Assembly (NCBI RefSeq): GCF_014203325.1 | Contig: NZ_JACHIV010000001.1 | Location: 4,341,501-4,405,500 of the forward strand | Direction: 5' to 3' | DNA: 64,000 nt | Origin: Saccharopolyspora gloriosae | Lineage (GTDB): Bacteria > Actinomycetota > Actinomycetes > Mycobacteriales > Pseudonocardiaceae | In this document: one piece after another, positions 38,856 to 57,401 of the stretch | How positions within the stretch are numbered: the first letter of the stretch is position 1 | Layout: every line of letters begins with the position of its first letter | Translations under genes and position numbers: made by a program | Notes under the pieces: model-generated | Seen by the model: the letters and a program-made list of their open reading frames with translations, nothing else | Told to the model about the DNA's origin: nothing | Database searches by the model: none

Positions 38856-38963
38856 CGGGTAGCGGAACCTCAGTGGCTTCCTCGCTGCGGGATCATTTTT
38901 CCAAGTGGCTCCGCCACGAGGAAAAATGCTGTCCTCGCGAGGAAGCCACTGAGAACCCGCCGG
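38856..38963 (+). repeat. Long-hairpin intergenic repeat, copy 1 (type A)
   Basis: Leader CGGGTAGCGGAACCTCAG, then a 16-bp perfect stem CTCAGTGGCTTCCTCG (38869-38884) / CGAGGAAGCCACTGAG (38938-38953). Inside are CTGCGGGATC, an ATTTTTCC / GGAAAAAT 8-bp stem and a terminal GTGGC-TCC-GCCAC hairpin. The right end is AACCCGCCGG. It lies in the 438-bp divergent gap between tctC and the sensor kinase. Unlike copies 2-4 it is followed by the short type B module, not by the TATGTGC tail. No gene is contained. Confidence 0.88.
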
Positions 38964-38990
38964 TGGTCGGCTTGCTCAAGCTGGTCACTG

Positions 38991-39033
38991 CTCAGCGGCT
39001 TCGCCGCTGACAAGACAACGGTCAAAAGATCAT
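38991..39033 (+). repeat. Short type B module, copy 1
   Basis: CTCAGCGGC-TTC-GCCGCTGA hairpin followed by CAAGACAACGGTCAAAAGATCAT. The same string, with a few changes, recurs at 57359-57401. It sits 28 nt after the long hairpin. Confidence 0.75.
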
Positions 39034-39155
39034 CGTGTGCGGACTTCCCTGCGTACTCGGCTCGCTACGCCATGTGTCCTGTGGGGACTGCTTACGGTTG
39101 TGCTGGTCAGGGGGTTAGCGTCTGGGCAGGCGCGACGTGGCGAGGGAGGTGGGGC

Positions 39156-40727
39156 ATGCGGGGGCCGCTCTCGCGGCAGCTGCTGGGCTGGCAGCTGGCG
39201 ATCATCCTGGTGCTGCTGGCCTCGATCGCCGTGTTCTCGGTGTCGCAGTCCAACGCCGCGTTCCGCGCCACCGAGGGCAGGCGGATGCTGTCGGTCGCCG
39301 AGGACCTCGCCGCGACCGACGGGGTCCGATCGAACCTGCAGGACCCGTTCGACCGGGACGCGTTGCCGATCTTCGCCGAGAGCGCCCGCAGCCTCTCCGG
39401 GGCCGACGAGGTGATCATCACCGACGCGCGGGGCGTGGTGCTGACCTCGCCCGACCCCGGCCAGCGCGGTCAGCTGCTGCCGCTGGGGACGAGCACCGTG
39501 CTCGGTGGCCGCGCCTGGGTGGGCCAGGTGCGCGACGCCGACGGCACCGAATCGCTGGTGGCGCACGTGCCGGTGATCGGGCCGGGCGCGCGGATCGTCG
39601 GCGTGGTCGCGGCGGGGCGGGAGACCCCGGACTTCTTCGCCGGTGTGCGGCGCGCTCCCGGCGATCCGCTGATGCTGCTGGCGTTCGCGACGTTCCTCGC
39701 CGTGGCCGGGTCGATCCTGCTGGCGCGGCGGGTCAAGCACCAGACGCTGGGGCTGGAACCGCAGGAGATCACGCGCCTGGTGGAGCACCGGGAGGCGATG
39801 CTGCACGGCATCCGCGAAGGCGTGCTCGGAGTGGACCAGCAGAACCGCATCACCGTGGTCAACGACCAGGCCAGGGACCTGCTGTCGCTGCCCGCGGACT
39901 GCGTCGGCCGGGACATCGACGAGCTCGACCTCAACGACCGCGCGCGCGACGTGCTCACCGGCCGCACCGGCGGCGTCGACCAGATCGTGCTGCGCCGGGG
40001 GCGGGTGGTGGTGCTGAACCGGATGCCGATCTCCACGGTCGGCGCGGTCGTCACCATGCGGGACCGCACCGAACTCGTCGACCTGCAGCAGGAACTGGCC
40101 GCGCACCGCGCCACCACCGACACGTTGCGGGCGCAGGCGCACGAGTTCAGCAATCGGCTGCACACCATCTCGGGGCTCATCGAACTCGGCGAGTTCGACG
40201 AGCTGGCGCGGTTCGTCGACCGCGTCAGCCACACCCGGGGGCAGTGGCAGTCGGAGGTCGCGGCGCGCATCGCCGACCCGGCCACGGCGGCGCTGCTGGT
40301 CGCGAAGGCCAGCCTGGCGGCGGAACGCGGTGTGGGACTGCGGCTGACCGACGGCAGCGCGCTCGGCGAAGTCGACGAGCAGTCCTCGGCCGACGTGACG
40401 ACGGTGCTGGGCAACCTGGTGGACAACGCGCTGGACGCGGTCGAAGGCGCGGCCGCGGACAACCTGATCGAGGTCGACATCCGGCACGCCGGCGACGTGG
40501 TGACGCTGGTGGTGCGCGACTCCGGCCCCGGGGTGGCGCCGGAGATCGTGGAGGAGGTCTTCCGGCACGGGTTCAGCACCAAGGCGGCCCGCGACGGGGA
40601 ACGCGGCCTCGGACTGGCGCTGACCAGGCAGATCTGCCACCGCCGGGGCGGTTCGGTGCAGGTGCGCAACGAACGCGGCGCCGTGTTCACCGCGCGGCTG
40701 CCGATGGATGCGGAGGTGCCCGCGTGA
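39156..40727 (+). CDS. CitA/DcuS-type sensor histidine kinase
   Basis: 523 residues from ATG at 39156 (GGGAGG 6 nt upstream). TM1 is near 11-29 and TM2 near 174-192, with a PAS-type extracellular domain of about 140 residues between them. A cytoplasmic PAS domain (MLHGIREGVLGVDQQNRI) follows. The Spo0B-type dimerisation helix contains H329 in AQAHEFSNRLHTISGL. The ATPase has LGNLVDNALDAV, RDSGPGVAP and GLGLALTRQI. This class senses carboxylates such as citrate and C4-dicarboxylates. It lies divergent from tctCBA, so it probably controls that transporter. Confidence 0.93.
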   Translation: MRGPLSRQLLGWQLAIILVLLASIAVFSVSQSNAAFRATEGRRMLSVAEDLAATDGVRSNLQDPFDRDALPIFAESARSLSGADEVIITDARGVVLTSPDPGQRGQLLPLGTSTVLGGRAWVGQVRDADGTESLVAHVPVIGPGARIVGVVAAGRETPDFFAGVRRAPGDPLMLLAFATFLAVAGSILLARRVKHQTLGLEPQEITRLVEHREAMLHGIREGVLGVDQQNRITVVNDQARDLLSLPADCVGRDIDELDLNDRARDVLTGRTGGVDQIVLRRGRVVVLNRMPISTVGAVVTMRDRTELVDLQQELAAHRATTDTLRAQAHEFSNRLHTISGLIELGEFDELARFVDRVSHTRGQWQSEVAARIADPATAALLVAKASLAAERGVGLRLTDGSALGEVDEQSSADVTTVLGNLVDNALDAVEGAAADNLIEVDIRHAGDVVTLVVRDSGPGVAPEIVEEVFRHGFSTKAARDGERGLGLALTRQICHRRGGSVQVRNERGAVFTARLPMDAEVPA

Positions 40728-41416
40728 TCAAGGTCCTGGTGGTGGACGACGACTTCATGGTCGCCAAGATCCACAGCGGTTACGTGGGCCGGGTCGAGGG
40801 GTTCGAGGTCGTCGGCGTCGCGCACTCCGGTGCCGACGCGCTGCGGGCGGTCGACGAACTGCGCCCCGAACTGGTGCTGCTGGACATCTACCTGCCCGAC
40901 ATGGACGGGCTCACCGTGCTGCGCTCGATGCGCACCGGCGCCCGGCCGTCCGCGGAACCCGACGTGCTGGTCATCAGCGCCGCGCACGACCTGGACACGG
41001 TGCGCGGCGCGGTGCGCGGCGGCGCGGTGCACTACCTGATCAAGCCGTTCAGCTTCGACGCGCTGCGCGAGCAGCTGGAACACTTCCGGGCGTTGCACGA
41101 TCGGCTCAGCGAACTCCCCGGCGATTCCCCCGCCGCGCAGCAGGACATCGACCGGCTCTTCGGCACCCCGGCGCGCCCGGCCGCGACGCCGAAGGGCGTG
41201 GCGAGCGAAACCGCGGTCGTGGTGGAGCGGGTGCTGCGCGAGGCCGCGGCGAGCGGCGAGGACCTGTCGGCCACCGAGTGCGCCGGGCTCGCGGAGCTGT
41301 CGCGGGTCTCGGCGCGCAAGTACCTGGAGCACTTCGTCGACACCGGCCGCGCGGAGGTGCGGCTGCGCTACGGCGGCACCGGCCGCCCGGAACGCCGCTA
41401 CCGCTGGTCGGTGTGA
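40724..41416 (+). CDS. CitB/DctR-type response regulator
   Basis: 230 residues, GTG start overlapping the kinase stop by GTGA. The receiver domain has KVLVVDDDFMVAKIH, phosphoacceptor D54 in LLDIYLPDMDG, VISAAHD and the Lys of IKPFSFDALR. The C-terminal DNA-binding part has ATECAGLAELSRVSARKYL and ends with RLRYG...RPERRY, the pattern of CitB-like regulators. It likely activates tctCBA in response to a carboxylate. Confidence 0.92.
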   Translation: MIKVLVVDDDFMVAKIHSGYVGRVEGFEVVGVAHSGADALRAVDELRPELVLLDIYLPDMDGLTVLRSMRTGARPSAEPDVLVISAAHDLDTVRGAVRGGAVHYLIKPFSFDALREQLEHFRALHDRLSELPGDSPAAQQDIDRLFGTPARPAATPKGVASETAVVVERVLREAAASGEDLSATECAGLAELSRVSARKYLEHFVDTGRAEVRLRYGGTGRPERRYRWSV

Positions 41417-41735
41417 GGCGTTCTGATCCTTCGCTTGCCGCGCAACCGGAAACCCTGATGTCGAAACCGCGCGCGGCGCTCGGCGGTCCCTCTTTCAGGC
41501 GGCCGTGGAGGACTCGATTTGTGGGCGCCGGGGTGTGGCCAGAGGCTGGCAGCGCGCACCTTTCGGATCTTCGAGGCGGGGCGTGCACGTCTCCGCGAAC
41601 GGCGACCCCCGTGAGATCATCTCGATCGCGCGGAGTGGCCACAGTGGACTTCCCGCCTCCGCGGGACGGGCTCGTCCGGCGCTCGGACCCGGATGCGCGC
41701 GGGCCGTGGTGGACGAGCGAAGGAGGACGGTCGGC
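41417..41735 (+). other. 319-bp gene-free gap before the HypE-like gene
   Basis: An open frame continues from the HypE-like gene back to 41505, but its translation lacks family similarity and a good ribosome binding site lies only at 41721-41726. I see no RNA gene, long repeat or clear terminator. Confidence 0.4.
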
Positions 41736-42641
41736 GTGAACACCGAGAATTCGCCGTGCGGCGTGGAAGAACGAGCACCGGGCGGGTGGGAGTTCGTCGA
41801 GTCGATCGTCTCGGAGGAATTCCCGGCCGCGCTCACCGGCGGGGTCGACCTGGCTCCGCTGGACGGGCGCGTCGCGATGACCACCGACTCGTTCGCCGCG
41901 TCGCCGCTGTTCTTCCCCGGCGGGAACCTCGGCGACCTCGCCGTCAACGGCACCGTGAACGACCTCGCCGCCTCCGGTGCCGTCCCCCGGCACCTGGTGG
42001 CGCGGCTCGTCGTCGAAGCCGGTTTCCCCGTCGGCGACCTGCGGCGGGTGGCGCGGTCGATGGGCGCCGCCGCGGCGGGCGCGGGCGTGCGGATCACCAG
42101 CGGTGGCGGTGCGGTCGTGGCGCGGGGCGAGGTCGACGGCTGCCGGATCGACACCACCGGCGTCGGCACCTTCACCGGCGCGCGCGGGCTGGGCGCGTCG
42201 CGGGCGCGGCCGGGCGACGCGGTGCTCGTGACCGGGCCGGTCGGGGACCACGGGATCGCGGTGCTGCTCCACCAGGACTCGCGGGTGGCCGAGCACGTCT
42301 CCGACACCGCCGCGCTGCACGGCCTCCTGCACGAGGTACTGGCGGCGGCGCCGGCCGTCCGCGTGCTGCGGAACGCGACGCGCGGCGGGATCGCCGCCGT
42401 GCTCGACGAGATCGCCCGCGCCTCCGGGGTGGCGGTGGCGCTGGAGGAGAGCGCGGTTCCCGTTCGCGCCCGGGTGCGCGCCGCGGCGGAACTGCTCGGC
42501 ATCGACCCGCTGCACGTGGCCTGCGAAGGCCGCGCGGTCGCGGTGGTCGGTGGCGACGAGGCCGAAACCGCGCTGGCCGCGATGCGCGCCCACCCGCTCG
42601 GCGGGCGCGCGGCGATCATCGGGCGGATCACGGCGGCGTGA
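41736..42641 (+). CDS. HypE-like PurM/AIR-synthase-fold protein
   Basis: 301 residues from GTG at 41736, AGGAGG 9 nt upstream. It is close to the HypE hydrogenase-maturation protein: MTTDSF, FFPGGNLGDLAVNGTVNDLA, GFPVGDLRRVARSM, VLVTGPVGDHGIAVLL, RNATRGGIAAVLDEIA and IDPLHVACEGR. True HypE ends in a Cys that carries the carbamoyl/cyano group used to build the NiFe centre. This protein ends GRITAA without Cys, and the usual VTGDTKV loop is replaced by TSGGGAVV. No other hyp or hydrogenase genes are in the window. It may be a repurposed PurM-fold ATP-using enzyme. Confidence 0.8.
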   Translation: MNTENSPCGVEERAPGGWEFVESIVSEEFPAALTGGVDLAPLDGRVAMTTDSFAASPLFFPGGNLGDLAVNGTVNDLAASGAVPRHLVARLVVEAGFPVGDLRRVARSMGAAAAGAGVRITSGGGAVVARGEVDGCRIDTTGVGTFTGARGLGASRARPGDAVLVTGPVGDHGIAVLLHQDSRVAEHVSDTAALHGLLHEVLAAAPAVRVLRNATRGGIAAVLDEIARASGVAVALEESAVPVRARVRAAAELLGIDPLHVACEGRAVAVVGGDEAETALAAMRAHPLGGRAAIIGRITAA

Positions 42642-42683
42642 CCCGCGCGCCCACCCCGACGACTCGCCAGCCCCGCTCCCGTC

Positions 42684-43550
42684 TCAGCCCCGCAGTGCCG
42701 GGGCCAGTTCGCGCCAGCCCTCGCGGGGCAGTTCGGTTCCCCTGCTCAGGACCTGCACGCAGACGTGGTCGGCACCGGCTTCGCGGTGCGCTCGCACCCG
42801 GTCGGCGATGGCGTCCACGTCGCCCCACGCGACCAGGCCGTCGATGAGCCGGTCGCTGCCGCCGTCGGCGAAGTCCTCGTCGGTGAAGCCGAGGCGCCGC
42901 AGGTTGTTCAGGTAGTTCGGCAGGCCCAGGTACGGCGCGGTCCGGAGCCGGGCGATCTCGCGGGCTTCGACCGGGTCGGTCTCCAGCACCACCTTCTGCT
43001 CCGGCGCCAGCAGCGGCCCGTCCCCGAGCACGTCCCGCGCGGTCGCGGTGTGCTCGGGCGTCGTGAGGTACGGGTGCGCCCCGGCCGACCGCTCCCCCGC
43101 CAGCGCGAGCGCCCGCGGGCCGAGCGCCGCCAGCACCCGCGCCTGCGGCGGCAGCGGGTCGTCGAGGGCGTCGAGTTCGTCCACGTAGGACCGCAGCTTG
43201 CTGAACGGCTTCTCGTAGGACCGGCCCGACCTCTCCACCACCGGTGCGTGGCTGGGGCCGATGCCGATCAGCGCTCGTCCCGGGTGCGTCCGGTCGACGC
43301 GCTGGTAGGCGGCGGCGAGGTCGGCGGCCTCGTGCTCCCAGATGTTGACGATCCCGGTGGCCACGACCAGCTTCTTCGTCGCGCCCAGCAGGGCCTGCAC
43401 CGTGCGCAGGTCCCCGGGAGCCACGCCGAGCCACAGCGCCGCGTACCCGAGCTCTTCGAGCTCGACCAGCGCTTCCCGGTGCTCGGCGTCGTCGCCGTCC
43501 CAGCTGGACGCCCCGGTCCACAGCCCGAACCGCCCGATCTCGATCGCCAT
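42684..43550 (-). CDS. LLM-class F420-dependent oxidoreductase
   Basis: 288-residue luciferase-like TIM-barrel oxidoreductase. Segments fitting the family are FGLWTGASSWDGDDAEH, ELEELGYAALWLG, VATGIVNIWEH and RALIGIGPSHAPVVE. Members in actinomycetes generally use deazaflavin F420 as hydride carrier. The substrate is unknown. It is followed on the same strand by no close gene and preceded by a PPOX-fold protein gene that could share cofactor biology. Confidence 0.85.
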   Translation of the reverse strand: MAIEIGRFGLWTGASSWDGDDAEHREALVELEELGYAALWLGVAPGDLRTVQALLGATKKLVVATGIVNIWEHEAADLAAAYQRVDRTHPGRALIGIGPSHAPVVERSGRSYEKPFSKLRSYVDELDALDDPLPPQARVLAALGPRALALAGERSAGAHPYLTTPEHTATARDVLGDGPLLAPEQKVVLETDPVEAREIARLRTAPYLGLPNYLNNLRRLGFTDEDFADGGSDRLIDGLVAWGDVDAIADRVRAHREAGADHVCVQVLSRGTELPREGWRELAPALRG

Positions 43551-43613
43551 GCCGCTCCTTCACGTCGTGGATCTCCCACCTCGGCCAACCCGCGACGCGA
43601 CCGCTCTGTTCCC

Positions 43614-44036
43614 TCAGCCCGCGAAGCGGCGCACGGCATCCGGGTGGATGACGAGCCGGACCCACTCCTCGTCGAGCATTCCGGCGAGTTCCTCGGCACG
43701 GGCCGGGTCGTCGAGGTCCCAGTAGCGAGCACCGAGGCGGGCGCACAGGTCGCTCGCCCCATCGGTCTCCACCGCGACGCGACCCGCGACCGACACCCAG
43801 TGCTCGCGTTCGCCCGTCGGAGCGGCGACGACGATCGAGGCGCGTGGATCGTCGCGCAGGCGCCGCACTTTGAGCGCGTCCGGCGCGGTGAACAGCTGGA
43901 TCGTGCCGTCGTCGGTCGCTTCGAACCACACCGGCCGGGGCTGCGGCGGAACCGGCCCGGCGGCCACGGTCAGGAAACCGTGCAGGGGGCGGCGGAGGAA
44001 TTCGAGGTCCTGGGCGGTCAAGGCGTCAGTGCTCAT
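43614..44036 (-). CDS. PPOX-class (pyridoxamine oxidase-fold) flavin/F420-binding protein
   Basis: 140-residue split beta-barrel protein. FLRRPLHGFLTVAAG and RPVWFEATDDGTIQLFTA match the N-terminal strands, then KVRRLRDDPRASIVVAAP and HWVSVAGRVAVE. F420- or FMN-dependent reductases of this size are common in actinobacteria. It lies 63 nt upstream of the LLM gene, in the same direction. Confidence 0.8.
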   Translation of the reverse strand: MSTDALTAQDLEFLRRPLHGFLTVAAGPVPPQPRPVWFEATDDGTIQLFTAPDALKVRRLRDDPRASIVVAAPTGEREHWVSVAGRVAVETDGASDLCARLGARYWDLDDPARAEELAGMLDEEWVRLVIHPDAVRRFAG

Positions 44037-44096
44037 CGTGGCCTTTCGGTCGTGTGGCGGGAGCGGAGTTCGGTGCGCATGTTCCGAGGAAAGCGG

Positions 44097-44963
44097 TCAC
44101 GCCGCAGGGCGGGCGCTCCCGGCGCGGGGGTCCCGCCAGGCCCCGGCCGCCGCGGACCGCGCGACGTAGTCCTCGAAAGCTCGGGGTGCCCGTCCCAGCA
44201 GGGCGGCGAGGTCGTCCGTCGTCGTGGCGAGCACCCCTCGGTCCATCAGCACGAACATCTCGGCGACGTGGTGGGCGTCGTCCTCGCCCAGGCCGTCGTC
44301 GACCAGCGTCGCGGCGTACTGCTCCGGCGAGATCGTCCGGTAGGTGAGCGGACGCCCGGACGCGCGGGAGATCAGTTCGACGGCCTCGCCGAAGGTGATC
44401 GAACGCGGCCCGGTGAGCTCGTAGATCCGGCCGGCGTGCCGACCGGGTTCGGTCAGCACCTGGACGGCGGCGTCGGCGACGTCGTCGACGTCGATGAACG
44501 GCTCGGGGACCGCGTCGGCCGGGGTCGCCAGCTCACCGGCGAGCAGCGGGGCGTGGAAGACCTCCTCGTCGAAGTTCTGCGCGAAGTTCGACGCCCGCAG
44601 GACGGTCCACTCCAGCGCCGAACCGCGCACCGCGTCCTCGGCCGAGCGCATGTCCAGTCCGAACGGGGAATCGCCCCAGGTGTCGGCGCCGCGCCCGGAC
44701 AGCAGCACCAGCCGCCGCACCCCGGCGGCCTCGGCGCGAGCCGTGAACTCGTGCACCGGGCCGGGCACGGTCGGCGCCACCAGGTAGACGGCGTCGACGC
44801 CCGCCAAGGCCGCGTCCCAGGTGCCGGGGTCGGACCAGTCGAACCGGGTCTCGCTCGACCGGGAGGCGGCCCGCACCGGCGTGCCGCGCAGCCGCAACCG
44901 GGCGAGGACCCGGCGGCCGGTCTTGCCGGTCGCGCCGAGGACGAGGGTGGTGTCGTTGCTCAT
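44097..44963 (-). CDS. NmrA-like / atypical SDR NAD(P)-binding protein
   Basis: 288-residue Rossmann-fold protein. GATGKTGRRVLARL at 10-23 is the dinucleotide loop; a Trp/Asp pair and VYLVAPTVPG follow. The usual SDR Tyr-x-x-x-Lys is not evident, as in NmrA and QOR2-type sensors. It is divergent from an AraC-type regulator gene 82 bp away, the classic layout of a regulator and its target. Confidence 0.84.
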   Translation of the reverse strand: MSNDTTLVLGATGKTGRRVLARLRLRGTPVRAASRSSETRFDWSDPGTWDAALAGVDAVYLVAPTVPGPVHEFTARAEAAGVRRLVLLSGRGADTWGDSPFGLDMRSAEDAVRGSALEWTVLRASNFAQNFDEEVFHAPLLAGELATPADAVPEPFIDVDDVADAAVQVLTEPGRHAGRIYELTGPRSITFGEAVELISRASGRPLTYRTISPEQYAATLVDDGLGEDDAHHVAEMFVLMDRGVLATTTDDLAALLGRAPRAFEDYVARSAAAGAWRDPRAGSARPAA

Positions 44964-45045
44964 GACTTCGAGTCAACCCCGCCGGTTCGGACAATCCCAT
45001 AGGTGAGAAGCCGGATCGCCTGCGCGTTCGTCTAACCTCGGCGAG

Positions 45046-45972: not shown

Positions 45973-45995
45973 CCCCCGCCCGCACCCAAAGACCG

Positions 45996-46270
45996 CGCCT
46001 TCGGCGGCGAAGCCGTGCCCCGGGCCGCGAAGCAGGCCTGCCTTGCGGCCGAAGGCCGTGCCTCGCGGCGAAGCCGTGCCTCGGGCTGCGAAGCAAGCCT
46101 GCTTGGCGGCGAAGCCGTGCCTGTATGTGCGAAGCACATAGCCCACGTCAAGAAGGTGACAACCCGCGGGTTCTCAGGTGGTCTGTCGCGAGGACGGCTT
46201 TTTCCCTCGTGGCGGAGCCACTTGGGAAAAAGATCCCGCAGCGACAGACCACCTGAGGTTCCGCCACCCG
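45996..46270 (-). repeat. Long-hairpin intergenic repeat, copy 2 (type A plus TATGTGC tail)
   Basis: Reverse orientation. The 16-bp stem is CTCAGGTGGTCTGTCG (46173-46188) / CGACAGACCACCTGAG (46242-46257), containing the conserved CTTTTTCCC...GGGAAAAAG and GTGGC-GGA-GCCAC core. On its 3' side (lower coordinates) lie the TATGTGC-GAA-GCACATA hairpin (46124-46140) and four CGGCGAAGCCGTGCC-type repeats between 46004 and 46121. It fills the 325-bp gap between the convergent araC-like and sodA genes. Confidence 0.9.
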
Positions 46271-46297
46271 ACCACACGTCCAAACCGACCCCAGAAA

Positions 46298-46921
46298 TCA
46301 GGGCAAGCGCAACCCATTGCGGCCCGCGCGCGCGTCGGTGAAGCGCTTGCCGACCTCGTCCCAGTTCACGACGTTCCACAGCTGCTTGACGTAGTCCGCC
46401 TTGACGTTCTTGTACTGCAGGTAGTACGCGTGCTCCCAGATGTCGAACACCAGCAGCGGCGTCGTGGCGATCGACAGGTTCGAGTGGTGGTCGCGCAGCT
46501 GCTGCGTGATCAACCGCTGACCCACCGGGTCCCACGCCAGCACGCCCCAGCCGTTGCCCTGGATCGTGGTCGACACCGCCTCCAGCTGAGCGCGGAACTT
46601 GTCGAACGAACCGAAGTCCTGATCGATCGCCGCCGCCAGCTCACCGGTCGGCTTGTCGCCACCGTTCGGCGAGAGGATCTTCCACCACACCAGGTGCAGC
46701 GAGTGCCCCGCCAGGTTGAACGCCAGGGTCGTCTCCAACCCCACGATCGACCCGAAGTCGCCCTTGTCCCGCGCCTCCGCGATCTTCTCGATCGTGTCGT
46801 TGGCGCCCTTCACGTAAGTCGCGTGGTGCTTGCTGTGGTGCAGCTCGTTGATCTCACCCGAGATCGCGGGCTCCAGCGCCGCGTAGTCGTAATCCAACTC
46901 GGGCAGCACGTACTGAGCCAT
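46298..46921 (-). CDS. sodA: Fe/Mn superoxide dismutase
   Basis: 207 residues from ATG at 46921 with GGGAG nearby; an upstream ATG at 46951 adds residues that do not resemble the family. It converts superoxide to H2O2 and O2. Metal ligands are H28 (ELHHSKHH), H76 (GHSLHLVWW), D160 and H164 (DIWEHAYY). [10 protein letters not shown] is present. The Fe versus Mn preference is not decided by these residues. No signal peptide; cytosolic, although related actinobacterial enzymes are often found outside the cell. Confidence 0.97.
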
Positions 46922-48299: not shown

Positions 48300-48583
48300 A
48301 AGCTCTGCCGTGAGCGGCGAACCCGTGCAGTGGACGAGCGAAGCGAAGTCCACCACGCGGCCAAAGGCCGTGCCTCGCGGCGTAGCCGTGCAGTGGACGA
48401 GCGAAGCGAAGTCTGCTTTGCGGCGTAGCCGTGCCTGTATGTGCGAAGCACATAGCCCACGTCGAAAAGTCCTCACCGGCGGGTTCTCAGTCGGTCTCTC
48501 GCGAGGACAGCTTTTTCCCTCGTGGCGGAGCCACTCGGGAAAAAGATCCCGCAGCGAGAGACCGACTGAGGTTCCGCCACCCG
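48300..48583 (-). repeat. Long-hairpin intergenic repeat, copy 3 (type A plus TATGTGC tail)
   Basis: Reverse orientation. The stem is CTCAGTCGGTCTCTCG (48486-48501) / CGAGAGACCGACTGAG (48555-48570), and the inner core is conserved. The TATGTGC hairpin lies at 48438-48454. The tail contains an exact 26-nt direct repeat, 48325-48350 and 48388-48413 (GTGCAGTGGACGAGCGAAGC and on), plus CGGCGTAGCCGTGC and CGGCCAAAGGCCGTGCC units. It occupies the 361-bp gap between the convergent acyltransferase and peptidase genes. Confidence 0.9.
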
Positions 48584-48617
48584 ACCACCCAAGCAAAACG
48601 ACCGGGCGGGCAAGAAA

Positions 48618-49997
48618 TCAAGGAAGCCGCGGCGGAGTCCGGGGCAGGTCGTCGCGGTCCAGGGGTGTGGTGAGCCTGGCCGGTGCCTGGTCCACGCCTG
48701 CCCAGCGGCGCAGTGTCGCCTCGGCCTCGGTGCGTTCGGCGCCGGGCAGGTCTTCGATCTGGGAGCCGTGGTTGCCGTCCGGCACCAGGTAGTCGTACGA
48801 GTCCCGGCTGCCCGGGCCTAGGCGGAACGGCTCGGCGCTCCACGGGTCGGCCGAACCGTTGACGAACATCAGTTCCGAGCCTTGCGAGGCGACCCACGCG
48901 GCGACGTCGGCCATCGCGCCGGGCCGGAACTGCATGTCGATCTCGCGCGGGACGAAGTTGCGCGGTTCTCCGATGGCGCGGTGGTGCAGCAGGTCCGCCA
49001 GCGGCTCGTCGGACACGTCGGGCCAGCCCAGCTGGGTGCCCGCCTGGTAGTAGTACGGCACGTACGGGTCGAGGCCCTGGTCGGCGTACGAGGAGAACTC
49101 CACGGTCTCGTCGAAGAAGGTCCACAGGTCGTCGAGGCTCGCGCCGGGCGCCGGGATCCGCGCGCAGTCCTGCTGTCCCCGGTACTGCCAGAACGCGAAC
49201 GGCGCGTCGACGACCACGGCCTCCAGCGCCCGGTCCACGTCGCCGATGATGCGGTCGAAGGTGAGCCCCTCCGCCGCCGCGTGGGCGGCGAACCGGTCCC
49301 GCAGCTCGGTGCGCCGGGTCAGCGCGTCCCGCTGCACGGCCGTCAGCGCGGCGCGGCAGGACTCGTCGCCGACGTTCGCGAGGAACTCGTCGTAGCGGTC
49401 GCGCTCGTTGACGATGTCGTTCGGCGCGACGTAGGCGACGGTCGCGTCGACGTCGCGCGGGTAGAAGCGGCGGTGGTAGACGGCGGTCATGCCGCCCTTG
49501 CTGGCGCCGGTGGTGACCCAGCGGTCGGCGTAGACCGCGCGCAGCGCTTCGATGACGCGGTGCTCGTCGGTGGCGGCCTGCCAGATGTTCAGGTCCGTCC
49601 AGTCCGGCCGGCCGGGTCGGGACGGGGTGAAGAAGCGGTGCTCCATCGCCACCTGGTTGCCGTCGAGCAGCCGGGTCGGCTCGGTGCGGCTCGCCTTCGC
49701 AGGCAGGTTGTAGCCGGTGGTGTAGAGGACCGTGGGCCGTGCGAGGTCGCGGTGCAGCAGGGTGAGGCGCTGCTGGAATCCGCCGGCCGCCGGGTCGCGG
49801 TGGTCGGTGGGCTGGGCGTAGGTGAGGTCGAACAGCCGGAAGCCGGGTTCCGTCGGGCGTTCACCGAGCACCGTCAGGCCGGGCACGGCGTCGAGCCGGG
49901 AACGCACGTCGTCGGGCGGGCTCGCGCCCGCGACGGGAACGCCCGCGAGCAGCAGGCATCCCGCGGCCAGCACCGACAGCCACCCTCGAATCCGCAT
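48618..49997 (-). CDS. Secreted S37/PS-10-type tripeptidyl aminopeptidase
   Basis: 459 residues with signal peptide MRIRGWLSVLAAGCLLLAGV, cleavage near AGA-SP. It is an alpha/beta-hydrolase serine peptidase of the Streptomyces PS-10 (S37) group, which removes tri- or tetrapeptides from N-termini. Family blocks are FDLTYAQPTDHRDP, LYTTGYNLPA, the nucleophile elbow GASKGG (S166), VAYVAPND, and a late VPDGNHGSQI with the catalytic His. No pro-sequence is evident. The end of its gene abuts the repeat-filled gap. Confidence 0.86.
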   Translation of the reverse strand: MRIRGWLSVLAAGCLLLAGVPVAGASPPDDVRSRLDAVPGLTVLGERPTEPGFRLFDLTYAQPTDHRDPAAGGFQQRLTLLHRDLARPTVLYTTGYNLPAKASRTEPTRLLDGNQVAMEHRFFTPSRPGRPDWTDLNIWQAATDEHRVIEALRAVYADRWVTTGASKGGMTAVYHRRFYPRDVDATVAYVAPNDIVNERDRYDEFLANVGDESCRAALTAVQRDALTRRTELRDRFAAHAAAEGLTFDRIIGDVDRALEAVVVDAPFAFWQYRGQQDCARIPAPGASLDDLWTFFDETVEFSSYADQGLDPYVPYYYQAGTQLGWPDVSDEPLADLLHHRAIGEPRNFVPREIDMQFRPGAMADVAAWVASQGSELMFVNGSADPWSAEPFRLGPGSRDSYDYLVPDGNHGSQIEDLPGAERTEAEATLRRWAGVDQAPARLTTPLDRDDLPRTPPRLP

Positions 49998-50153
49998 CCG
50001 CGCCCCTCCCGCTGATCACCGGCAGCGACCAACCTAATGCCGATCGCACGGACGCGGTAGCCCGCGAGCGGAGCCGCATCCGGGGTGAGCCGGGCCGATC
50101 GTCGGTCCGGCTCACCCCGGATGGCGTTTCCGAGTCCTGCTCGGTGCCGCCGA

Positions 50154-51122: not shown

Positions 51123-51446
51123 GGTCTCACCCCACTGAGAATGTGTTGATCATCAGTTGTCCTGCTGGGAGCGAGCCACGCCCCGACGCGGCAATGTCCG
51201 TTGTACACCGGTGAATCACCCGACGATGTGCTCCGCCAGTAGGAACCTGGCGGCACCCGGACATTGGCGCGACGACACTGCTGAGACGACATTGCCTGCC
51301 CGGTCACCCGGCGGGCGACGGTGAAACGGATCGCTGCGGACCATTGTTCACCCGCAGCACTCATAAGATCAACTGATCGGTTTTCCGAAACCGGTGGGAA
51401 ATCCGGGTGCGACACCTGGGGCCGGACGCCGAAAAACGTTGCTACA
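51123..51446. other. 324-bp gene-free region upstream of the DivIVA-like gene
   Basis: Presumed promoter region of the coiled-coil gene. It contains a weak hairpin CGGTTT-TCCG-AAACCG (51378-51393), perhaps ending the TetR transcript that arrives from the right. No gene or RNA is recognised. Confidence 0.4.
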
Positions 51447-52016: not shown

Positions 52017-52130
52017 GCCCGCAAGCCTGCCATGCGCGCCGCCCGCAGCGTTGCGCGCCATGTCACCCTGGCGGCGTCGGTACTGGTCAAACGCCTGAAC
52101 CGAGGTGCGCCGACCGCCTCGAACACGCTG

Positions 52131-52164
52131 TTGATGTACAGATGTACACAGCCGGTGCTAGTGT
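52131..52164 (+). promoter_or_regulatory. Promoter/operator of the choline oxidation genes
   Basis: TGTACA-GA-TGTACA at 52135-52148 is a TetR-type operator, and TGCTAGTGT at 52157-52164 reads as an extended -10 (TGn-TAGTGT at 52159). The operator covers the -35 position, so binding would block polymerase. The betB start lies 130 nt downstream. Confidence 0.55.
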
Positions 52165-52293
52165 CCGTCGGCAACGCAGCCAGGCCCGCCGCGCCCCGGC
52201 CGAGAACGAATCGGCCCGCGCCCGCACCGGCCGCCCGCGCGACCACGCGCCGCACTGAGACCCGAACGGACCAAAGGACCAGCAGGGACACCT

Positions 52294-53784
52294 ATGTCGA
52301 ATACCGAAGGCCCGAGCACGCTGTTCATCGACGGGACCTGGCAGCCCGCCGCCGCCGGCGGCGTCCGCGAAATCCACAGCCCCGCCGACGGCACCCTCGT
52401 CACCACCGTCTCCGAAGGTGACCGCGCCGACACCGAACGCGCCGTGCTCGCCGCCCGCCGCGCCTTCGACGACGGCGCCTGGGCGAACACCTCCGCCTGG
52501 GACCGCGGCGACCTGCTGCTGCGAGTCGCCGACATCCTCGTCCGGGACAAGGACGAATTCGCCCGCGCCGAATCCGGCGACACCGGCAAACGCCTGGTGG
52601 AGAGCGAATACGACATGGACGACATCGCCGGCTGCTTCCGCTACTTCGGCAAGATCGCGGGCACCGACGGCGGCAGCGTCATCGACACCGGCTCCCCCGA
52701 CTCGTTCAGCCGCGTGCGCTACGAACCCGTCGGCGTGTGCGGAATGATCACGCCGTGGAACTTCCCGCTGCTGCAGGTGGCGTGGAAGGTCGCTCCCGCC
52801 ATCGCCGCCGGCGACACCTTCGTGCTCAAGCCCAGCGAACTCACGCCCAGCACCGCGATCCTGCTGATGCGCGCCCTCACCGAGGCCGGACTGCCCTCCG
52901 GGGTCGGCAACCTCGTGCTCGGCACCGGCCCCGAAGTCGGCGCCGTCCTGTCCGAACACCCCGACATCGACCTCGTCTCGTTCACCGGCGGCCTGCACAC
53001 CGGGCGCCGCGTGGCGGCGGCAGCGGCGGCCACCGTGAAGAAGGTCGCGCTGGAGCTCGGCGGGAAGAACCCCAACGTCGTGTTCGCCGACGCCGACTTC
53101 GACACCGCCGTCGACTACGCCCTGATGGCGGTGTTCCTGCACTCCGGGCAGGTCTGCTCCGCCGGGGCCCGGCTGATCGTGCAGGACGAGATCCACGACC
53201 GCTTCGTCGACGAAGTCGTGCGCCGCGCCGAGAAGATCCGCATCGGCGGCCCCTACGACACCGACGCGGAGACCGGCCCGCTGATCTCCGCCGCGCACCT
53301 GGAGAAGGTCGACGCCTACGTCCAGAAGTGCGTCGAAGAAGGCGCCGTGCTGCGCACCGGTGGCCGCCGCCCCGAAGGCGAGCAGTACGCCGACGGCCAC
53401 TACTACCTGCCGACCGTGCTGGACGAAGTCCAGCAGGGCTCGTACGCGGTCGTCGAAGAATCCTTCGGCCCGGTGCTGACCGTGGAGCGGTTCACCGACG
53501 AGGACGACGCCGTGCGCATCGCCAACGACACCCACTACGGCCTGGCCGGCGCCGTGTTCAGCTCCGAGGTGAGCAAGGCGCAGCGCGTCGCGCACCGGCT
53601 CCGCCACGGCACCGTGTGGATCAACGACTTCCACCCCTACCTGCCGCAGGCCGAATGGGGCGGATACAAGCAGTCCGGCATCGGACGCGAGCTCGGGCCC
53701 ACCGGGCTCGGCGAGTACCAGGAGGCCAAACACATCCACCAGAACCTCCGCCCTGTTCCTCCTAGGTGGTTTGACGGGCGGTAA
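52294..53784 (+). CDS. betB: Betaine-aldehyde dehydrogenase-type aldehyde dehydrogenase
   Basis: 496-residue NAD(P)-dependent aldehyde dehydrogenase. MITPWNFPLLQVAWK is the coenzyme segment. E254 in LELGGKNP and catalytic C288 in GQVCSAGARL are in place, followed by ESFGPVLTVE. Glycine betaine formation from betaine aldehyde is inferred from the downstream BetA-like oxidoreductase and permease genes. The gap after it is 417 bp and contains a mosaic repeat, so either the operon is split or the repeat is transcribed. Confidence 0.86.
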   Translation: MSNTEGPSTLFIDGTWQPAAAGGVREIHSPADGTLVTTVSEGDRADTERAVLAARRAFDDGAWANTSAWDRGDLLLRVADILVRDKDEFARAESGDTGKRLVESEYDMDDIAGCFRYFGKIAGTDGGSVIDTGSPDSFSRVRYEPVGVCGMITPWNFPLLQVAWKVAPAIAAGDTFVLKPSELTPSTAILLMRALTEAGLPSGVGNLVLGTGPEVGAVLSEHPDIDLVSFTGGLHTGRRVAAAAAATVKKVALELGGKNPNVVFADADFDTAVDYALMAVFLHSGQVCSAGARLIVQDEIHDRFVDEVVRRAEKIRIGGPYDTDAETGPLISAAHLEKVDAYVQKCVEEGAVLRTGGRRPEGEQYADGHYYLPTVLDEVQQGSYAVVEESFGPVLTVERFTDEDDAVRIANDTHYGLAGAVFSSEVSKAQRVAHRLRHGTVWINDFHPYLPQAEWGGYKQSGIGRELGPTGLGEYQEAKHIHQNLRPVPPRWFDGR

Positions 53785-53811
53785 GGACCACGGCTCGTCG
53801 TGCTCTGGGGG

Positions 53812-54075
53812 CGGGTAGCGGAACCTCAGTTGGCCTCTCGCTGCGGGATCTTTTTCCCGAGTGGCTCCGCCACGAGGGAAAAAGCTGTCCTCGCGAGAGG
53901 CCAACTGAGAACCCGCCGGTGGTCGGCTTCTCGACGTGGGCTATGTGCTTCGCACATACAAGCACGGCTTCGCCGCAAGGCAGGCGTGCTCCGCCGCCCA
54001 AGGCACGGCCTTCGGCCGCAAGGCACGGCTTCGCCCGCCCACTGCACGGCTTTGCCGCTGGTCGGGCTTCGTTGC
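53812..54075 (+). repeat. Long-hairpin intergenic repeat, copy 4 (type A plus TATGTGC tail)
   Basis: Forward orientation. Leader CGGGTAGCGGAACCTCAG is followed by stem CTCAGTTGGCCTCTCG (53825-53840) / CGAGAGGCCAACTGAG (53894-53909), inner TTTTTCCC / GGGAAAAA, and terminal GTGGC-TCC-GCCAC. The right end is AACCCGCCGG at 53910-53919. Then come GACGTGGGC, the TATGTGC-TTC-GCACATA hairpin (53942-53958) and several GCACGGC repeats to about 54075. It is the only copy that lies between two same-direction genes (betB and the permease). Confidence 0.9.
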
Positions 54076-54201
54076 TCGGGCGGTCGCCCTGCGCGGGCAC
54101 GGGGTCGCAGGATTTCGGCAGTACCACTTCGTTGCGCAACAACCACCCGTTGTTCGGCCTCGCAGCCCGCGAGGCGGCGAGCGCGGGAAAGGAGTTAGGG
54201 C

Positions 54202-55743
54202 ATGAGCGCGCCCTCCGGTGACGCCGAACTCGGCGAGTTCGGCTACACCAACAAACTGAAGAGGACCCTCGGGTCGTTCCACACGTTCGCCGCGGGCATC
54301 AGCTACATCTCGGTGCTGACCGGCACCTTCCAGCTGTCGTACTTCGGGTTGTCCTTCGGCGGTCCCGCCTACTGGTGGTCCTGGCCGATGGTCTTCTTCG
54401 GCCAGCTGATGGTGGCGTTGAGCTTCGCGGAGCTGGCCTCGCACTACCCGATCGCCGGGTCCATCTACAACTGGTCGAAGCGGCTCGGCGGCAAGCACGT
54501 CGCCTGGCTCGCGGGCTGGATGATGCTGCTGGCCTCGATCGTGTCGATCGCGGCGACGGCGCTGGCCTACCAGCACACGCTGCCGCAGATCTGGGGCGCC
54601 TTCCAGGTCATCGGTGACGGATCGGGCACGACGGAAGCCGCCAACGGGGTGCTGCTGGCTTCCGGGCTGATCGTGTTCACCACGCTGATCAACGCGTTCG
54701 GCGTGAAGCTGATGGCCCGGATCAACAGCGCGGGCGTGGCGATCGAACTGGTCGCGGCGGTGCTGCTGATCCTGGTGCTGGCGGTGTTCGCGACCCGCGG
54801 ACCCGAAGTCGTGCTCGACACGCAGGGCACCGGTTCGGCCTACGGCGGCAGCGGTTACCTGGGTGCGTTCCTCGTCGCCGCGATCGCCTCCTCCTACGTG
54901 ATGTACGGCTTCGACACGGCGTCCTCGCTGGGCGAGGAGTCGATCGACCCGCACCGCAACGCGCCGAAGGCGATCCTGCGGTCGCTGATCGCGTCGTTCG
55001 TGCTCGGCGGGCTGATCATCCTGCTGGCGCTGATGGCCGCCCGCGACCTCACCGCGCCGCAGCTGACCGAGGACGGGCTCCAGTTCGTGCTCACCGACGC
55101 GCTCGGCCCGCTGGTGGGCAGGTTGTTCCTGCTGGTGGTGTTCGTGGCGATCACGGTGTGCGTGCTGGCCGTGCACACCGCGGCGATCCGCATCGCGTTC
55201 GCGATGGCCCGCGACAACGCGCTGCCCGGCGGTTCGAAGCTGGCGCGGGTCAGCCCGCGGTTCCAGACTCCGGTGATCCCGGCGATCGTGATCGGCGTGC
55301 TGGCGGTGGCGATGCTGGTGTTCAACATCGGCCAGCCGCAGATCTTCTCCGCCGTGACCAGCCTCGCGATCATCCTGATCTACATCTCCTACCTGCTGGT
55401 GACGATCCCGATGCTGGTGGCCCGGCTGCGCGGCAAGTGGTCGTCGGAGAAGCAGGAAGGGCGCTTCTCGCTGGGCCGCTGGGGTCTGCCGGTCAACATC
55501 GCGGCCGTGCTGTGGGGCCTCGGCATGACGGTGAACCTGGCCTGGCCGCGCAACGAGGTCTACAACGCCGAACCGCCGTTCCACTGGTACCTGCAGTGGA
55601 TCTCGGTGCTGTTCGTCGGCATCACGGCCGGTGGCGGCTTCGCCTACTACTGGTTCGTGCAGCGGCACCGCATCGGCGTGCTCGCCGACCACGCCGCGAA
55701 CGCTTCGGAAGACACCGAGGACCCGAAACCTGCCCTGTCCTGA
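54202..55743 (+). CDS. APC-superfamily amino-acid/choline-type permease
   Basis: 513 residues, about 12 membrane helices. The helix 1 motif is near FHTFAAGISYISVLTG, SFAELASHYPIAGSIYNW lies near helix 2/3, and GFDTASSLGEESIDP is the APC motif. It is codirectional with betA 20 nt downstream, so it probably imports choline or a related amine for the two oxidation enzymes; cargo is inferred from context. Confidence 0.88.
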   Translation: MSAPSGDAELGEFGYTNKLKRTLGSFHTFAAGISYISVLTGTFQLSYFGLSFGGPAYWWSWPMVFFGQLMVALSFAELASHYPIAGSIYNWSKRLGGKHVAWLAGWMMLLASIVSIAATALAYQHTLPQIWGAFQVIGDGSGTTEAANGVLLASGLIVFTTLINAFGVKLMARINSAGVAIELVAAVLLILVLAVFATRGPEVVLDTQGTGSAYGGSGYLGAFLVAAIASSYVMYGFDTASSLGEESIDPHRNAPKAILRSLIASFVLGGLIILLALMAARDLTAPQLTEDGLQFVLTDALGPLVGRLFLLVVFVAITVCVLAVHTAAIRIAFAMARDNALPGGSKLARVSPRFQTPVIPAIVIGVLAVAMLVFNIGQPQIFSAVTSLAIILIYISYLLVTIPMLVARLRGKWSSEKQEGRFSLGRWGLPVNIAAVLWGLGMTVNLAWPRNEVYNAEPPFHWYLQWISVLFVGITAGGGFAYYWFVQRHRIGVLADHAANASEDTEDPKPALS

Positions 55744-55763
55744 GCGGAAACGGAGCTGTGACC

Positions 55764-57317
55764 ATGACCGAAGAGTTCGACTACGTGGTCGTCGGCGGCG
55801 GTAGCGCGGGTGCCGCGGTCGCCGCACGACTGTCCGAGGACCCGTCCACCACGGTGTGCCTGCTGGAGGCCGGTCCGTCCGACGTGGGCGACAAGGCGAT
55901 CCTGGAGCTGGACCGCTGGATGGCACTGCTGGAATCCGGCTACGACTGGGACTACCTGGTGGAGCCGCAGGAGCAGGGCAACTCGCACATGCGCCACGCC
56001 CGCGCCCGCGTGCTCGGCGGCTGCTCCTCGCACAACTCGTGCATCGCGTTCTGGGCGCCCGCCGAGGACCTCGACGAGTGGGAGCGGATGGGCGCCACCG
56101 GCTGGGGCGCGAAGGACATCTTCCCGCTGTACAAGCGGCTGGAGACCAACGACGGCCCCGGCGACCACCACGGCCGCAGCGGCCCGGTGACGCTGCGCAG
56201 CGTGCCGCCGAAGGACCCGTCCGGGGTGGCGCTGCTCCAGGCGTGCGAGCAGGCGGGCATCCCGATCACCGAGTTCAACTCGGGCAAGACCGTCACGCAC
56301 GGCGCGAACTGGTTCCAGATCAACGCCCGCGAGGACGGCACCCGCTCGTCGTCCTCGGTGTCCTACCTGCACCCGATCATCGGCAAGCGCCCGAACCTGG
56401 AGGTGCGCACCGACGTGCGCGCCAAGAAGGTCGTGTTCGACGGCAAGCGCGCCACCGGCGTGCACTACCTCGACCCCGACCTCATCCACACCCGCACGGT
56501 GCGGGCGCGGCGCGAGGTGGTGCTGTCCACCGGCGCCATCGACACGCCGAAGCTGCTGATGCTCTCCGGCATCGGCCCGGCCGAGCACCTGCGCGAGGTG
56601 GGCGTGGACGTGCTCGTCGACTCCCCCGGCGTGGGCTCGAACCTCCAGGACCACCCGGAGGGCGTCATCGGCTGGGACGCGAAGCAGCCGATGCCCACCG
56701 AATCGACCCAGTGGTGGGAGATCGGCATCTTCACCACCACCGAGCCGGGACTGGACCGGCCGGACCTGATGTTCCACTACGGTTCGGTGCCGTTCGACAT
56801 GCACACCGCGCGGCAGGGCTACCCGACGACGGAGAACGGCTTCTGCCTGACGCCGAACGTCACCCGCAGCCGCTCCATCGGCACCGTCCGGTTGCGCACC
56901 CGCGACTTCCGGGACAAGCCGCGCGTCGACCCGCGGTACTTCACCGACCCGCACGACATCCGGGTGATGACCCACGGCATCAAGCTGGCCCGGGAGATCG
57001 TGTCGCAGCAGGCCATGCAGGGCTGGGCGGGCGCCGAGCTGCACCCCGGCCCGGACGTGCGAACCGACGACGAGATCGCCGACTACATCCGCAAGACGCA
57101 CAACACCGTGTACCACCCGGCCGCGTCGGTGCCGATGGGCGCCGACGACGACCCGAACGCACCGCTGGACGCGCGGCTGCGCGTGAAGGGCGTCGAAGGT
57201 CTGCGGGTGGCGGACGCCTCGGCGATGCCGTTCCTGGTGGCGGTGAACCCGAACATCACCACCATGGCCATCGGCGAGAAGTGCTCCGACCTCCTCAAGG
57301 AGGACAACGCGGGGTGA
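55764..57317 (+). CDS. betA: GMC oxidoreductase, choline dehydrogenase-type
   Basis: 517 residues from ATG at 55764, GGAG 8 nt upstream; GTG at 55758 is also in frame. FAD-dependent. The ADP-binding loop is VVVGGGSAGAAVAARLSED, with the Glu of LLEAGPSD. RVLGGCSSHNSCIAFW is GMC signature 1, STGAIDTPKLLMLSGIGPA is signature 2, and YHPAASVPMG holds the active-site His. The end is MPFLVAVNPNITTMAIGEK. Oxidation of choline to betaine aldehyde is the likely reaction. Confidence 0.87.
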   Translation: MTEEFDYVVVGGGSAGAAVAARLSEDPSTTVCLLEAGPSDVGDKAILELDRWMALLESGYDWDYLVEPQEQGNSHMRHARARVLGGCSSHNSCIAFWAPAEDLDEWERMGATGWGAKDIFPLYKRLETNDGPGDHHGRSGPVTLRSVPPKDPSGVALLQACEQAGIPITEFNSGKTVTHGANWFQINAREDGTRSSSSVSYLHPIIGKRPNLEVRTDVRAKKVVFDGKRATGVHYLDPDLIHTRTVRARREVVLSTGAIDTPKLLMLSGIGPAEHLREVGVDVLVDSPGVGSNLQDHPEGVIGWDAKQPMPTESTQWWEIGIFTTTEPGLDRPDLMFHYGSVPFDMHTARQGYPTTENGFCLTPNVTRSRSIGTVRLRTRDFRDKPRVDPRYFTDPHDIRVMTHGIKLAREIVSQQAMQGWAGAELHPGPDVRTDDEIADYIRKTHNTVYHPAASVPMGADDDPNAPLDARLRVKGVEGLRVADASAMPFLVAVNPNITTMAIGEKCSDLLKEDNAG

Positions 57318-57340
57318 GGCATCCGTCCTGACCTGCTTAG

Positions 57341-57401
57341 CGGGTCGGGTGGCGGAACCTCAGCGGCTTCGCCACTGACACGACGAAGATCGAAAGATCA
57401 T
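57341..57401 (+). repeat. Short mosaic repeat, copy 5 (type A leader fused to type B)
   Basis: CGGGTGGCGGAACCTCAG (57346-57363), the leader of the long hairpins, runs straight into CAGCGGC-TTC-GCCACTG and then ACGAAGATCGAAAGATCAT. The latter is the type B module otherwise found at 38991-39033. The long hairpin core is absent. It lies between the convergent betA and amidohydrolase genes. Confidence 0.82.

What the first reader, a model, noticed from the sequence alone, without database searches (positions are those of the whole stretch)
38856..57401. Family of long intergenic hairpins with compensatory stem changes
Four copies (38856-38963, 46163-46270, 48476-48583, 53812-53919) share leader GCGGAACCTCAG, an inner TTTTTCC..GGAAAAA stem and terminal GTGGC-TCC-GCCAC hairpin. 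The 16-bp outer stem varies yet pairs perfectly in every copy: CTCAGTGGCTTCCTCG, CTCAGGTGGTCTGTCG, CTCAGTCGGTCTCTCG and CTCAGTTGGCCTCTCG, each matched by its exact complement. Changes on one arm are mirrored on the other, which argues for selection on the structure (RNA or single-stranded DNA) or for a mechanism that rewrites both arms. All copies are intergenic. I do not know of a described family with these features.
Basis: seen in the sequence. Interest (0 to 1): 0.88.

Follow-up and report, generated by a model that had tools for sequence, protein, structure and literature searches.

The report
Shape-keeping DNA hairpins after gene ends
Many copies of a 99-letter hairpin sit just after genes in this bacterium and its relatives, and although the letters of the stem change quickly from copy to copy the two halves usually still match, so this repeat keeps its shape while its sequence is rewritten.

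Summary
The four hairpins are real and where stated. They belong to a large family: 338 exact leader matches in this 6.83 Mb Saccharopolyspora genome (28 of 30 fetched are long elements) and structural relatives in 13 of 46 sampled genera of its family; no Rfam match. Stem covariation is strong. In this genome 54 of 73 mapped copies have their leader 10-50 nt after a stop codon, in the sense orientation. Against a relative whose flanks are 89-98% identical, 8 of 9 shared sites carry a different outer stem, changed in both arms. Hybrids (arms of two types) and inverted cores point to exchange between copies and strand switching in DNA. Copies after gatB in a low-copy genus still show compensatory changes, so exchange between copies is not the whole cause. 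Nearest known kind: REPINs of Pseudomonas, for which compensatory changes are already published; but no Y1/RAYT transposase or reverse transcriptase was found in the highest-copy genome. Verdict: a new, RAYT-less variant of the REPIN/MITE kind, probably a mobile or converting 3'-end hairpin kept by selection on pairing. Mobilising enzyme and function are unproven; a C.A over G.T mismatch bias, in the outer stem only, is unexplained.

The parts
38862..38960 (+). long hairpin element, outer 9-mer TGGCTTCCT (perfect 16-bp outer stem)
   Evidence: lies between two divergent genes, an exception
38991..39011 (+). type-A 3' flank hairpin CTCAGCGGCTTCGCCGCTGAC
46166..46264 (-). long hairpin element, outer 9-mer GTGGTCTGT; leader 33 nt after the stop codon of a Fe/Mn superoxide dismutase gene (46298-46921, -)
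46123..46142 (-). type-B 3' flank hairpin (GCTATGTGCTTCGCACATAC on -)
48479..48577 (-). long hairpin element, outer 9-mer TCGGTCTCT; leader 40 nt after the stop of a peptidase S37 gene (48618-49997, -)
48437..48456 (-). type-B 3' flank hairpin
53818..53916 (+). long hairpin element, outer 9-mer TTGGCCTCT; leader 33 nt after the stop of an aldehyde dehydrogenase gene (52294-53784, +)
53940..53959 (+). type-B 3' flank hairpin GCTATGTGCTTCGCACATAC
57352..57377 (+). solo leader GCGGAACCTCAG plus short hairpin CGGCTTCGCCACTG; no long element

Best explanation
This is a repeat family of the Pseudonocardiaceae that works like a REPIN: a non-autonomous palindromic element of about 99 nt (in some copies inside a repeated unit of 231-242 nt with inverted-repeat ends) that spreads between gene ends and persists there as a 3'-end hairpin. 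Shown: architecture of conserved feet (GCGGAAC / AACCCGC), a conserved internal loop and variable but paired helices; in this genome and in G018, position just after stop codons in the sense orientation for most mapped copies; sites filled in one species and empty in another; stems replaced in place with both arms still matching; hybrids and inverted cores. Inferred: copies exchange sequence by ectopic gene conversion, and pairing is then restored or kept because copies that do not fold are selected against (as mRNA 3' hairpins affecting termination, processing or stability, or as the folded substrate of the mobilising enzyme), with some help from strand switching inside the hairpin. The mobilising enzyme, transcription of the copies and any function at the RNA level are not shown.
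For: Covariation: 188 cells changed on both sides against 67.2 (sd 7.9) in shuffles and a score of 0.349 against at most 0.153 for slid partners, in 46 sequences (these had been filtered to at most 4 outer-stem mismatches). Across 39 elements of other genera, outer-stem pair 24-102 is C-G in 24 and G-C in 15, no exception. Left and right arms share 3.65 of 4.04 bits; of 7 variable core sites between them, 4 are inside the shuffled range and 3 are linked more loosely (63 of 98 copies). Place: 58 of 73 copies follow a gene on the same strand, 54 of them with the leader 10-50 nt after the stop; divergent gaps depleted (4/72 against 106/410 gaps of 150 bp or more), convergent gaps enriched (32/72 against 79/410); 29 of 33 on the same strand in G018. 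Turnover: of 16 sites with both flanks found in NFXS83, 9 hold a long element, 1 a 35-nt remnant and 6 no long element; 8 of the 9 differ in both arms. Low-copy genus g56: element just after gatB (NCBIfam) in 5 of 7 genomes, in three of which the model detects only that copy, with compensatory C-G/G-C and T-A/C-G changes among them.
Against: No mobilising enzyme identified; Y1 transposase and reverse transcriptase not found in the 338-match genome. If sense RNA structure were selected, G.U should be tolerated more than A.C; in the outer stem it is not (G.T:A.C 7:6 in this genome, 2:25 in other genera). Gene context rests on my own gene caller, and there are no expression data. The gatB set is only 5 sequences, one of them (L308) with 4 mismatches, and two genomes of that genus lack the copy.
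Confidence: 0.55

Rival explanations
1. Pure DNA-level rewriting without selection on structure: the palindrome extrudes during replication, the polymerase switches between arms and copies one onto the other, and ectopic gene conversion spreads stem types. Matching arms are a by-product.
For: Inverted cores in 9 of 209 copies, 6 copies with one foot rewritten as the complement of the other (GTT/AAC 5, AAC/GTT 1, among the commonest types listed), hybrids, a 35-nt deletion remnant in NFXS83, no G.U preference.
Against: The imperfect parts are not perfected: AAC/AAC is kept in 90 of 98 copies of this genome and 35 of 39 of other genera, and the G.T in the internal loop in 92 of 98 and 34 of 39. 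Templating alone does not explain the sense orientation or the spacing to stop codons.
Confidence: 0.2
2. Active transposon-like element: an unidentified enzyme excises and inserts the folded single strand, and only well-folded copies move, so covariation reflects selection for mobility.
For: A clean empty site in two relatives at 1230627; inverted-repeat ends at 231-242 nt around the hairpin in four places; replichore orientation in G018 beyond gene orientation: 50 of 57 exact matches, or 49 of 54 without three chance-looking stems, against 204 of 330 genes.
Against: No Y1 transposase or reverse transcriptase match in G000, G002, G003 or G018 (one search had 0-1 first-look candidates in each); no clear target duplication; no replichore bias beyond gene orientation in G000 (40:23, p 0.31); in-place stem switching is not simple transposition.
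Confidence: 0.15
3. They are simply the intrinsic transcription terminators of these genomes, amplified as repeats.
For: Stable hairpins, just after stop codons, enriched between convergent genes.
Against: No T run follows the hairpin in the flanks shown. Downstream of gatB several relatives have an unrelated hairpin, in G000 (L334) followed by a T run, and in G003 the element comes behind an unrelated hairpin. Conserved internal loops and feet are not needed for termination.
Confidence: 0.1

Closest known systems
REPINs (REP doublets forming hairpins; Pseudomonas; PMC3116915, passages seen)
   Same: Extragenic hairpins in many copies (101 GI copies aligned there; two conserved 16-mers 71 bp apart), conserved ends, a middle part whose length and pairing matter more than its sequence, compensatory changes called common.
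   Different: No RAYT/Y1 gene found in the highest-copy genomes; the feet GCGGAAC and AACCCGC are not exact inverted copies; conserved internal loop in the middle; sense orientation just after stop codons; stem replaced in place between species. Whether REPINs show the last points was not tested.
GTAG/CGTC REPs and RAYTs (PMC3733652, passages seen)
   Same: Palindromic, largely intergenic; a GTAG tetranucleotide at the foot in part of the copies (13 of 63 standard-core copies of this genome).
   Different: Longer (REPs are 20-40 bp, abstract); the foot is GTGG in 44 of those 63; no RAYT found. The words actinobacteria, Saccharopolyspora, Streptomyces and Pseudonocardia do not occur in that paper's main text.
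ERIC/RU-type and other bacterial MITEs (recalled; PMC2229807 and PMC2759123 seen only in search listing with start of abstract)
   Same: Non-autonomous, 100-250 bp, intergenic palindromes.
   Different: Rapidly varying outer stem with matched arms, conserved internal loops; target duplication not established.
Integron attC sites (recalled)
   Same: Variable sequence with conserved folded shape, one strand possibly special.
   Different: AAC is on both feet instead of AAC...GTT; scattered singly after genes.

Membership tests
REPIN / GTAG REP | RAYT (Y1, PF01797) in the genome | tested here: not met
   no match in G000-G003 and G018; 1 in G004, G017, G030 and 2 in G005, whose kind (RAYT or IS) was not examined
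REPIN / GTAG REP | GTAG at the foot of the hairpin | tested here: inconclusive
   GTAG in 13 of 63 standard-core copies (19 of 98 in all), GTGG in 44 of 63 (57 of 98)
REPIN / GTAG REP | two inverted REPs at the ends of a paired spacer | tested here: not met
   AAC on both feet, so the ends are not exact inverted copies
REPIN / GTAG REP | high copy, extragenic, hairpin with compensatory changes | tested here: met
MITE | terminal inverted repeats | tested here: inconclusive
   paired ends (up to 4 mismatches in 18) at 231-242 nt around the hairpin in L051, L241, L248, L251 only; at L051 the outermost six letters are also in the empty site
MITE | target-site duplication and related autonomous element | tested here: inconclusive
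   none clear; no autonomous element was identified in the stretches held, which are a part of the genome
Known RNA family (Rfam 15) | covariance-model match | tested here: not met
   (window, gathering): 0; (6 loci, E up to 0.1): 0
Intrinsic terminator | hairpin followed by a T run | tested here: not met
   flanks shown
Intrinsic terminator | ends transcription | not testable with these tools
   needs RNA 3'-end data
Integron attC | RYYYAAC / GTTRRRY core sites (recalled) | tested here: not met
   AAC on both feet in 90 of 98 and 35 of 39

The most novel reading that the evidence does not exclude
The hairpins form as DNA in the cell and are edited there. In the outer stem, surviving mismatches on the leader strand are C.A far more than G.T (25:2 in other genera, 24:7 in the genome-contig set of mainly other Saccharopolyspora), and the conserved loop is A.C, A.A, C.A on that strand. 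NucS/EndoMS, present in all 8 genomes tested, prefers G.T, G.G and T.T, with weak or no activity on others, notably A.C (PMC8228993, passage). A leader-strand DNA hairpin with G.T would be cut and repaired from another copy, which would make matched arms, hybrids and stem switching one process: a repeat that is proof-read as a hairpin. Against it: no such bias in this genome's own outer stems (7 G.T to 6 A.C) or in the inner stem, and a conserved G.T in the internal loop. The other reading of the bias is that the opposite strand is the one whose fold is selected: it folds better in 36 of 37 elements of other genera, by 8.8 kcal/mol on average, partly because the loop becomes GUU/GUU.
Probability: 0.15. 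Interest if true: 0.82.

Novelty: new variant of a known kind. Interest (0 to 1): 0.6.

Why it matters
It gives hundreds of parallel, fast-evolving stems in one genome with visible outcomes (perfect, one mismatch, hybrid, inverted), so the old question of whether compensatory change comes from selection on RNA, selection on DNA shape, or hairpin-guided rewriting can be tested directly. It also shows a REPIN-like population living without a detectable RAYT in its richest genomes, placed regularly after stop codons in the two genomes where I mapped it.

Tried and rejected
RAYT-driven REP: Y1 transposase not found in the highest-copy genomes. Retro-element: RVT_1 not found in G000, G002-G005 and G018, one match in G001. 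TGA-specific insertion: stops next to copies are TGA in 46 of 54 against 912 of 1015 genes, so no excess. Replichore orientation in G000: one search's listing looked + biased but was cut (it omitted a - copy seen in L024), so I did not use it; with three chunks that I had picked because of that listing left out (11 copies, all +) it is 40:23, in line with gene orientation. Ectopic conversion as the only cause: does not fit the gatB copies of g56. Bottom-strand fold as a general rule: the mismatch bias is in the outer stem only; in the inner stem G.T:A.C is 5:2, 10:8 and 4:3. Deep conservation after gatB: not so. Of 29 genomes checked, the long element follows gatB within the stretch printed in 4 (G122, G173, G187 of g56, and G003 farther down); 25 have none there, two of these (G010, G018) with leader-like fragments (the script's 'hairpin-like' flags on G019, G100 and G138 were false, judged by eye; one search had read the wrong strand for many). 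Plasmid and phage collections: no match to one 199-nt query. Literature: searches listed no paper describing this family, judged from titles and abstract starts, plus passages of PMC3610266 and PMC3733652; one search was uninformative; the library lacks most subscription journals, and the S. erythraea genome paper was not seen.

Method limits: one search counted many copies twice (both strands), corrected. One search timed out. Before I filtered 209 copies to 181 (length 97-103, standard core orientation, at most 4 outer-stem mismatches), chose 50 for diversity and aligned 43 of them plus 3 window copies; this raises the share of paired cells. Ortholog pair G000b 93505 / G001 was missed by the script but is seen. 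R1 searches scored at most 20 or 150 candidates per genome, so counts of 20 are lower bounds and 'single copy' means single detected copy. The haplotype counts treat related haplotypes as independent. In one search, 35 of 98 copies with other cores were left out.
Full report
Two of the four were folded: z-scores of -8.2 to -9.4 on either strand. Rfam 15 has nothing for the window or for six related loci.

They are members of a large family. The pattern GCGGAACCTCAG-N9-CG occurs 338 times in this 6.83 Mb genome and never in the reversed-pattern control; of the 30 fetched, 28 are long elements. The genus is Saccharopolyspora: relative G001 has contigs with the same lengths as two of S. sp. NFXS83. 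Of 60 genomes (own included) 14 have exact matches, some of them single chance-like ones; the five others of the same genus have 26 to 228, and G018 of another genus 57. A covariance model from 46 diverse copies finds the element in 53 of 200 genomes and 13 of 46 genera of the family, from one detected copy to at least 20 (the scoring cap).

Anatomy. Feet GCGG/CCGC; a conserved AAC/AAC loop; a 16-bp outer stem CTCAG-N9-CG; a conserved 9-nt by 9-nt internal loop; an inner stem of varying sequence; and a tip hairpin. Two main kinds of 3' flank follow. At four places the hairpin sits in a unit of 231-242 nt whose ends are imperfect inverted repeats, such as GCCTGACTTTGATC...GATCAAAGACAGCC.

Covariation. 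On 46 sequences, 88.2% of cells pair (76.3% shuffled), 21 pairs have changes on both sides (16.0), 188 cells are changed on both sides against 67.2 (sd 7.9), further pair types 58 against 51.2 (5 of 500 shuffles as high), and the score is 0.349 against 0.142 shuffled and 0.153 or less with slid partners. The sequences had been filtered to at most 4 outer-stem mismatches, and the structure was read from such copies, so the share of paired cells is favoured; the tip helices pair in only 67-74% of cells. Relatedness inflates such numbers, but across 39 elements of other genera one pair switches wholesale, C-G 24 to G-C 15, with no exception.

Not every copy is perfect. Of 98 distinct copies sampled in this genome, 71 are perfect, 20 have one mismatch and 7 have three or more; six of these seven look like hybrids whose left arm is one stem type and whose right arm is another. 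Over all 209 copies held then, 121 are perfect and 55 have one mismatch, and 9 have the core inverted between the arms.

Linkage. In the 63 copies with the standard 53-nt core, left and right arms share 3.65 of 4.04 bits (shuffled mean 2.35, none of 500 as high), although 53 nt lie between them. Of seven variable core sites in between, four tell no more about the left arm than in shuffles, and three (columns 15, 18, 37; 3, 0 and 20 of 500 shuffles as high) are linked, carrying about half of their own information. Arms are matched to each other across a partly shuffled middle, which plain copying of whole elements does not give.

Turnover in place. For 16 copies whose two flanks both map to NFXS83, that genome has a long element at 9, a 35-nt remnant at 1 and no long element at 6, two of these with short leader-like remnants. 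Flanks of the shared sites are 89-98% identical, yet 8 of 9 stems differ in both arms; over the 8 that the script aligned, 3.38 of 9 letters differ per arm against 4.16 between random pairs (5.8% of shuffles as low). With G002 (6 sites, 3.42 against 3.40) and G003 (3 sites, 4.50 against 3.93) shared sites are no more alike than random ones. At 1230627 a unit of about 240 nt is absent, cleanly, from G001 and G003.

Place. In 74 mapped copies none is inside a called gene; 58 of the 73 with an upstream gene called follow one on the same strand, and 54 have their leader 10-50 nt after the stop, 46 of these at 28-46. Divergent gaps are depleted and convergent ones enriched against gaps of 150 bp or more. 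In G018, 29 of 33 follow a gene on the same strand. Four of the five gatB copies of genus g56 have exactly 15 nt between stop and hairpin foot. In the window, copies follow superoxide dismutase, peptidase S37 and aldehyde dehydrogenase genes; the copy at 38862 is an exception between divergent genes.

Selection or rewriting? g56 has one to four detected copies per genome. A copy lies just after gatB (named by NCBIfam) in 5 of 7 of these genomes, and all five share an unusual GGGG/CCCC foot and the same tip, so one insertion is likely. Between them the stem shows compensatory changes: CTCAG/CTGAG to CTGAG/CTCAG, TGG/CCA to TCG/CGA, and T-A to C-G. In three of the genomes (G095, G122, G142) no second copy was detected that could act as donor. 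This favours selection on pairing, or correction within the copy. One of the five (L308) has 4 mismatches.

A result that fits neither simply: mismatches in the outer stem. If sense RNA were selected, G.U should survive better than A.C. Among unique arm haplotypes with up to three mismatches, leader-strand G.T against A.C is 7:6 in this genome, 2:2 in G001-G003 stretches, 7:24 in the genome-contig set and 2:25 in other genera. The inner stem shows no such bias, and a G.T in the internal loop is conserved in 92 of 98. The opposite strand folds better in 36 of 37 elements of other genera and in 60 of 84 of this genome. Either the opposite strand's fold matters, or leader-strand DNA hairpins with G.T are removed; NucS, present in 8 of 8 genomes tested, has that preference (PMC8228993, passage). 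This is a lead, not a demonstration.

Replication. In G018, 50 of 57 exact matches (49 of 54 without three chance-looking stems) point with the replication fork, judged by GC skew, against 204 of 330 genes; in the mapped sample, which includes older copies, 26 of 33 do. This genome shows no bias beyond its genes.

Known kinds. [quoted passage not shown] But REPINs are tied to RAYT transposases, which were not found in the highest-copy genomes here, and the ends here are not inverted REPs. I therefore call it a new variant of the REPIN/MITE kind and not a member of the REPIN family. Function, enzyme and strand remain open.

Noticed in passing
window 53940-53959, 46123-46142, 48437-48456 and homologous places: The type-B flank hairpin also changes in matched fashion between copies (ATGTGC/GCACAT, ATTCGC/GCGAAT, ATGCGC/GCGCAT, AAAGCGC/GCGCTTT).
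   Followed up: no
window 45993-46140, 48340-48460, 53960-54070: Arrays of tiny palindromes (CACGGCTTCGCCGC, GGCCTTCGGCC and variants) follow type-B copies, like a second repeat class.
   Followed up: no
L005, L021, L248, L080, L115, L148, L175, L182, L186: Core inverted between the two outer arms, some with one foot rewritten as the complement of the other: possible strand switching within the hairpin.
   Followed up: partly
G018 chromosome (loci L352-L371): Copies, mostly of one stem type (CGCCCTCCT), point with the replication fork in about nine of ten exact matches, more than genes do.
   Followed up: partly
L249:9727-9845: A 119-nt unit with the same inverted-repeat ends (GCCTGTCTTTGATC / GATCAAAGACGGGC) but without the long hairpin.
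   Followed up: no
L315, L321: Two copies after the same gene (88% identical proteins; benzoate-dioxygenase-small-subunit-like by NCBIfam, below its cut-off on a fragment) carry about 55 extra nt in the tip of the hairpin.
   Followed up: no
L320, L305: Copies right after a recA gene (RecA by NCBIfam on a fragment, below its cut-off; the next gene looks like recX by eye) and between genes that look by eye like murC and ftsQ: the element may lie inside operons.
   Followed up: partly
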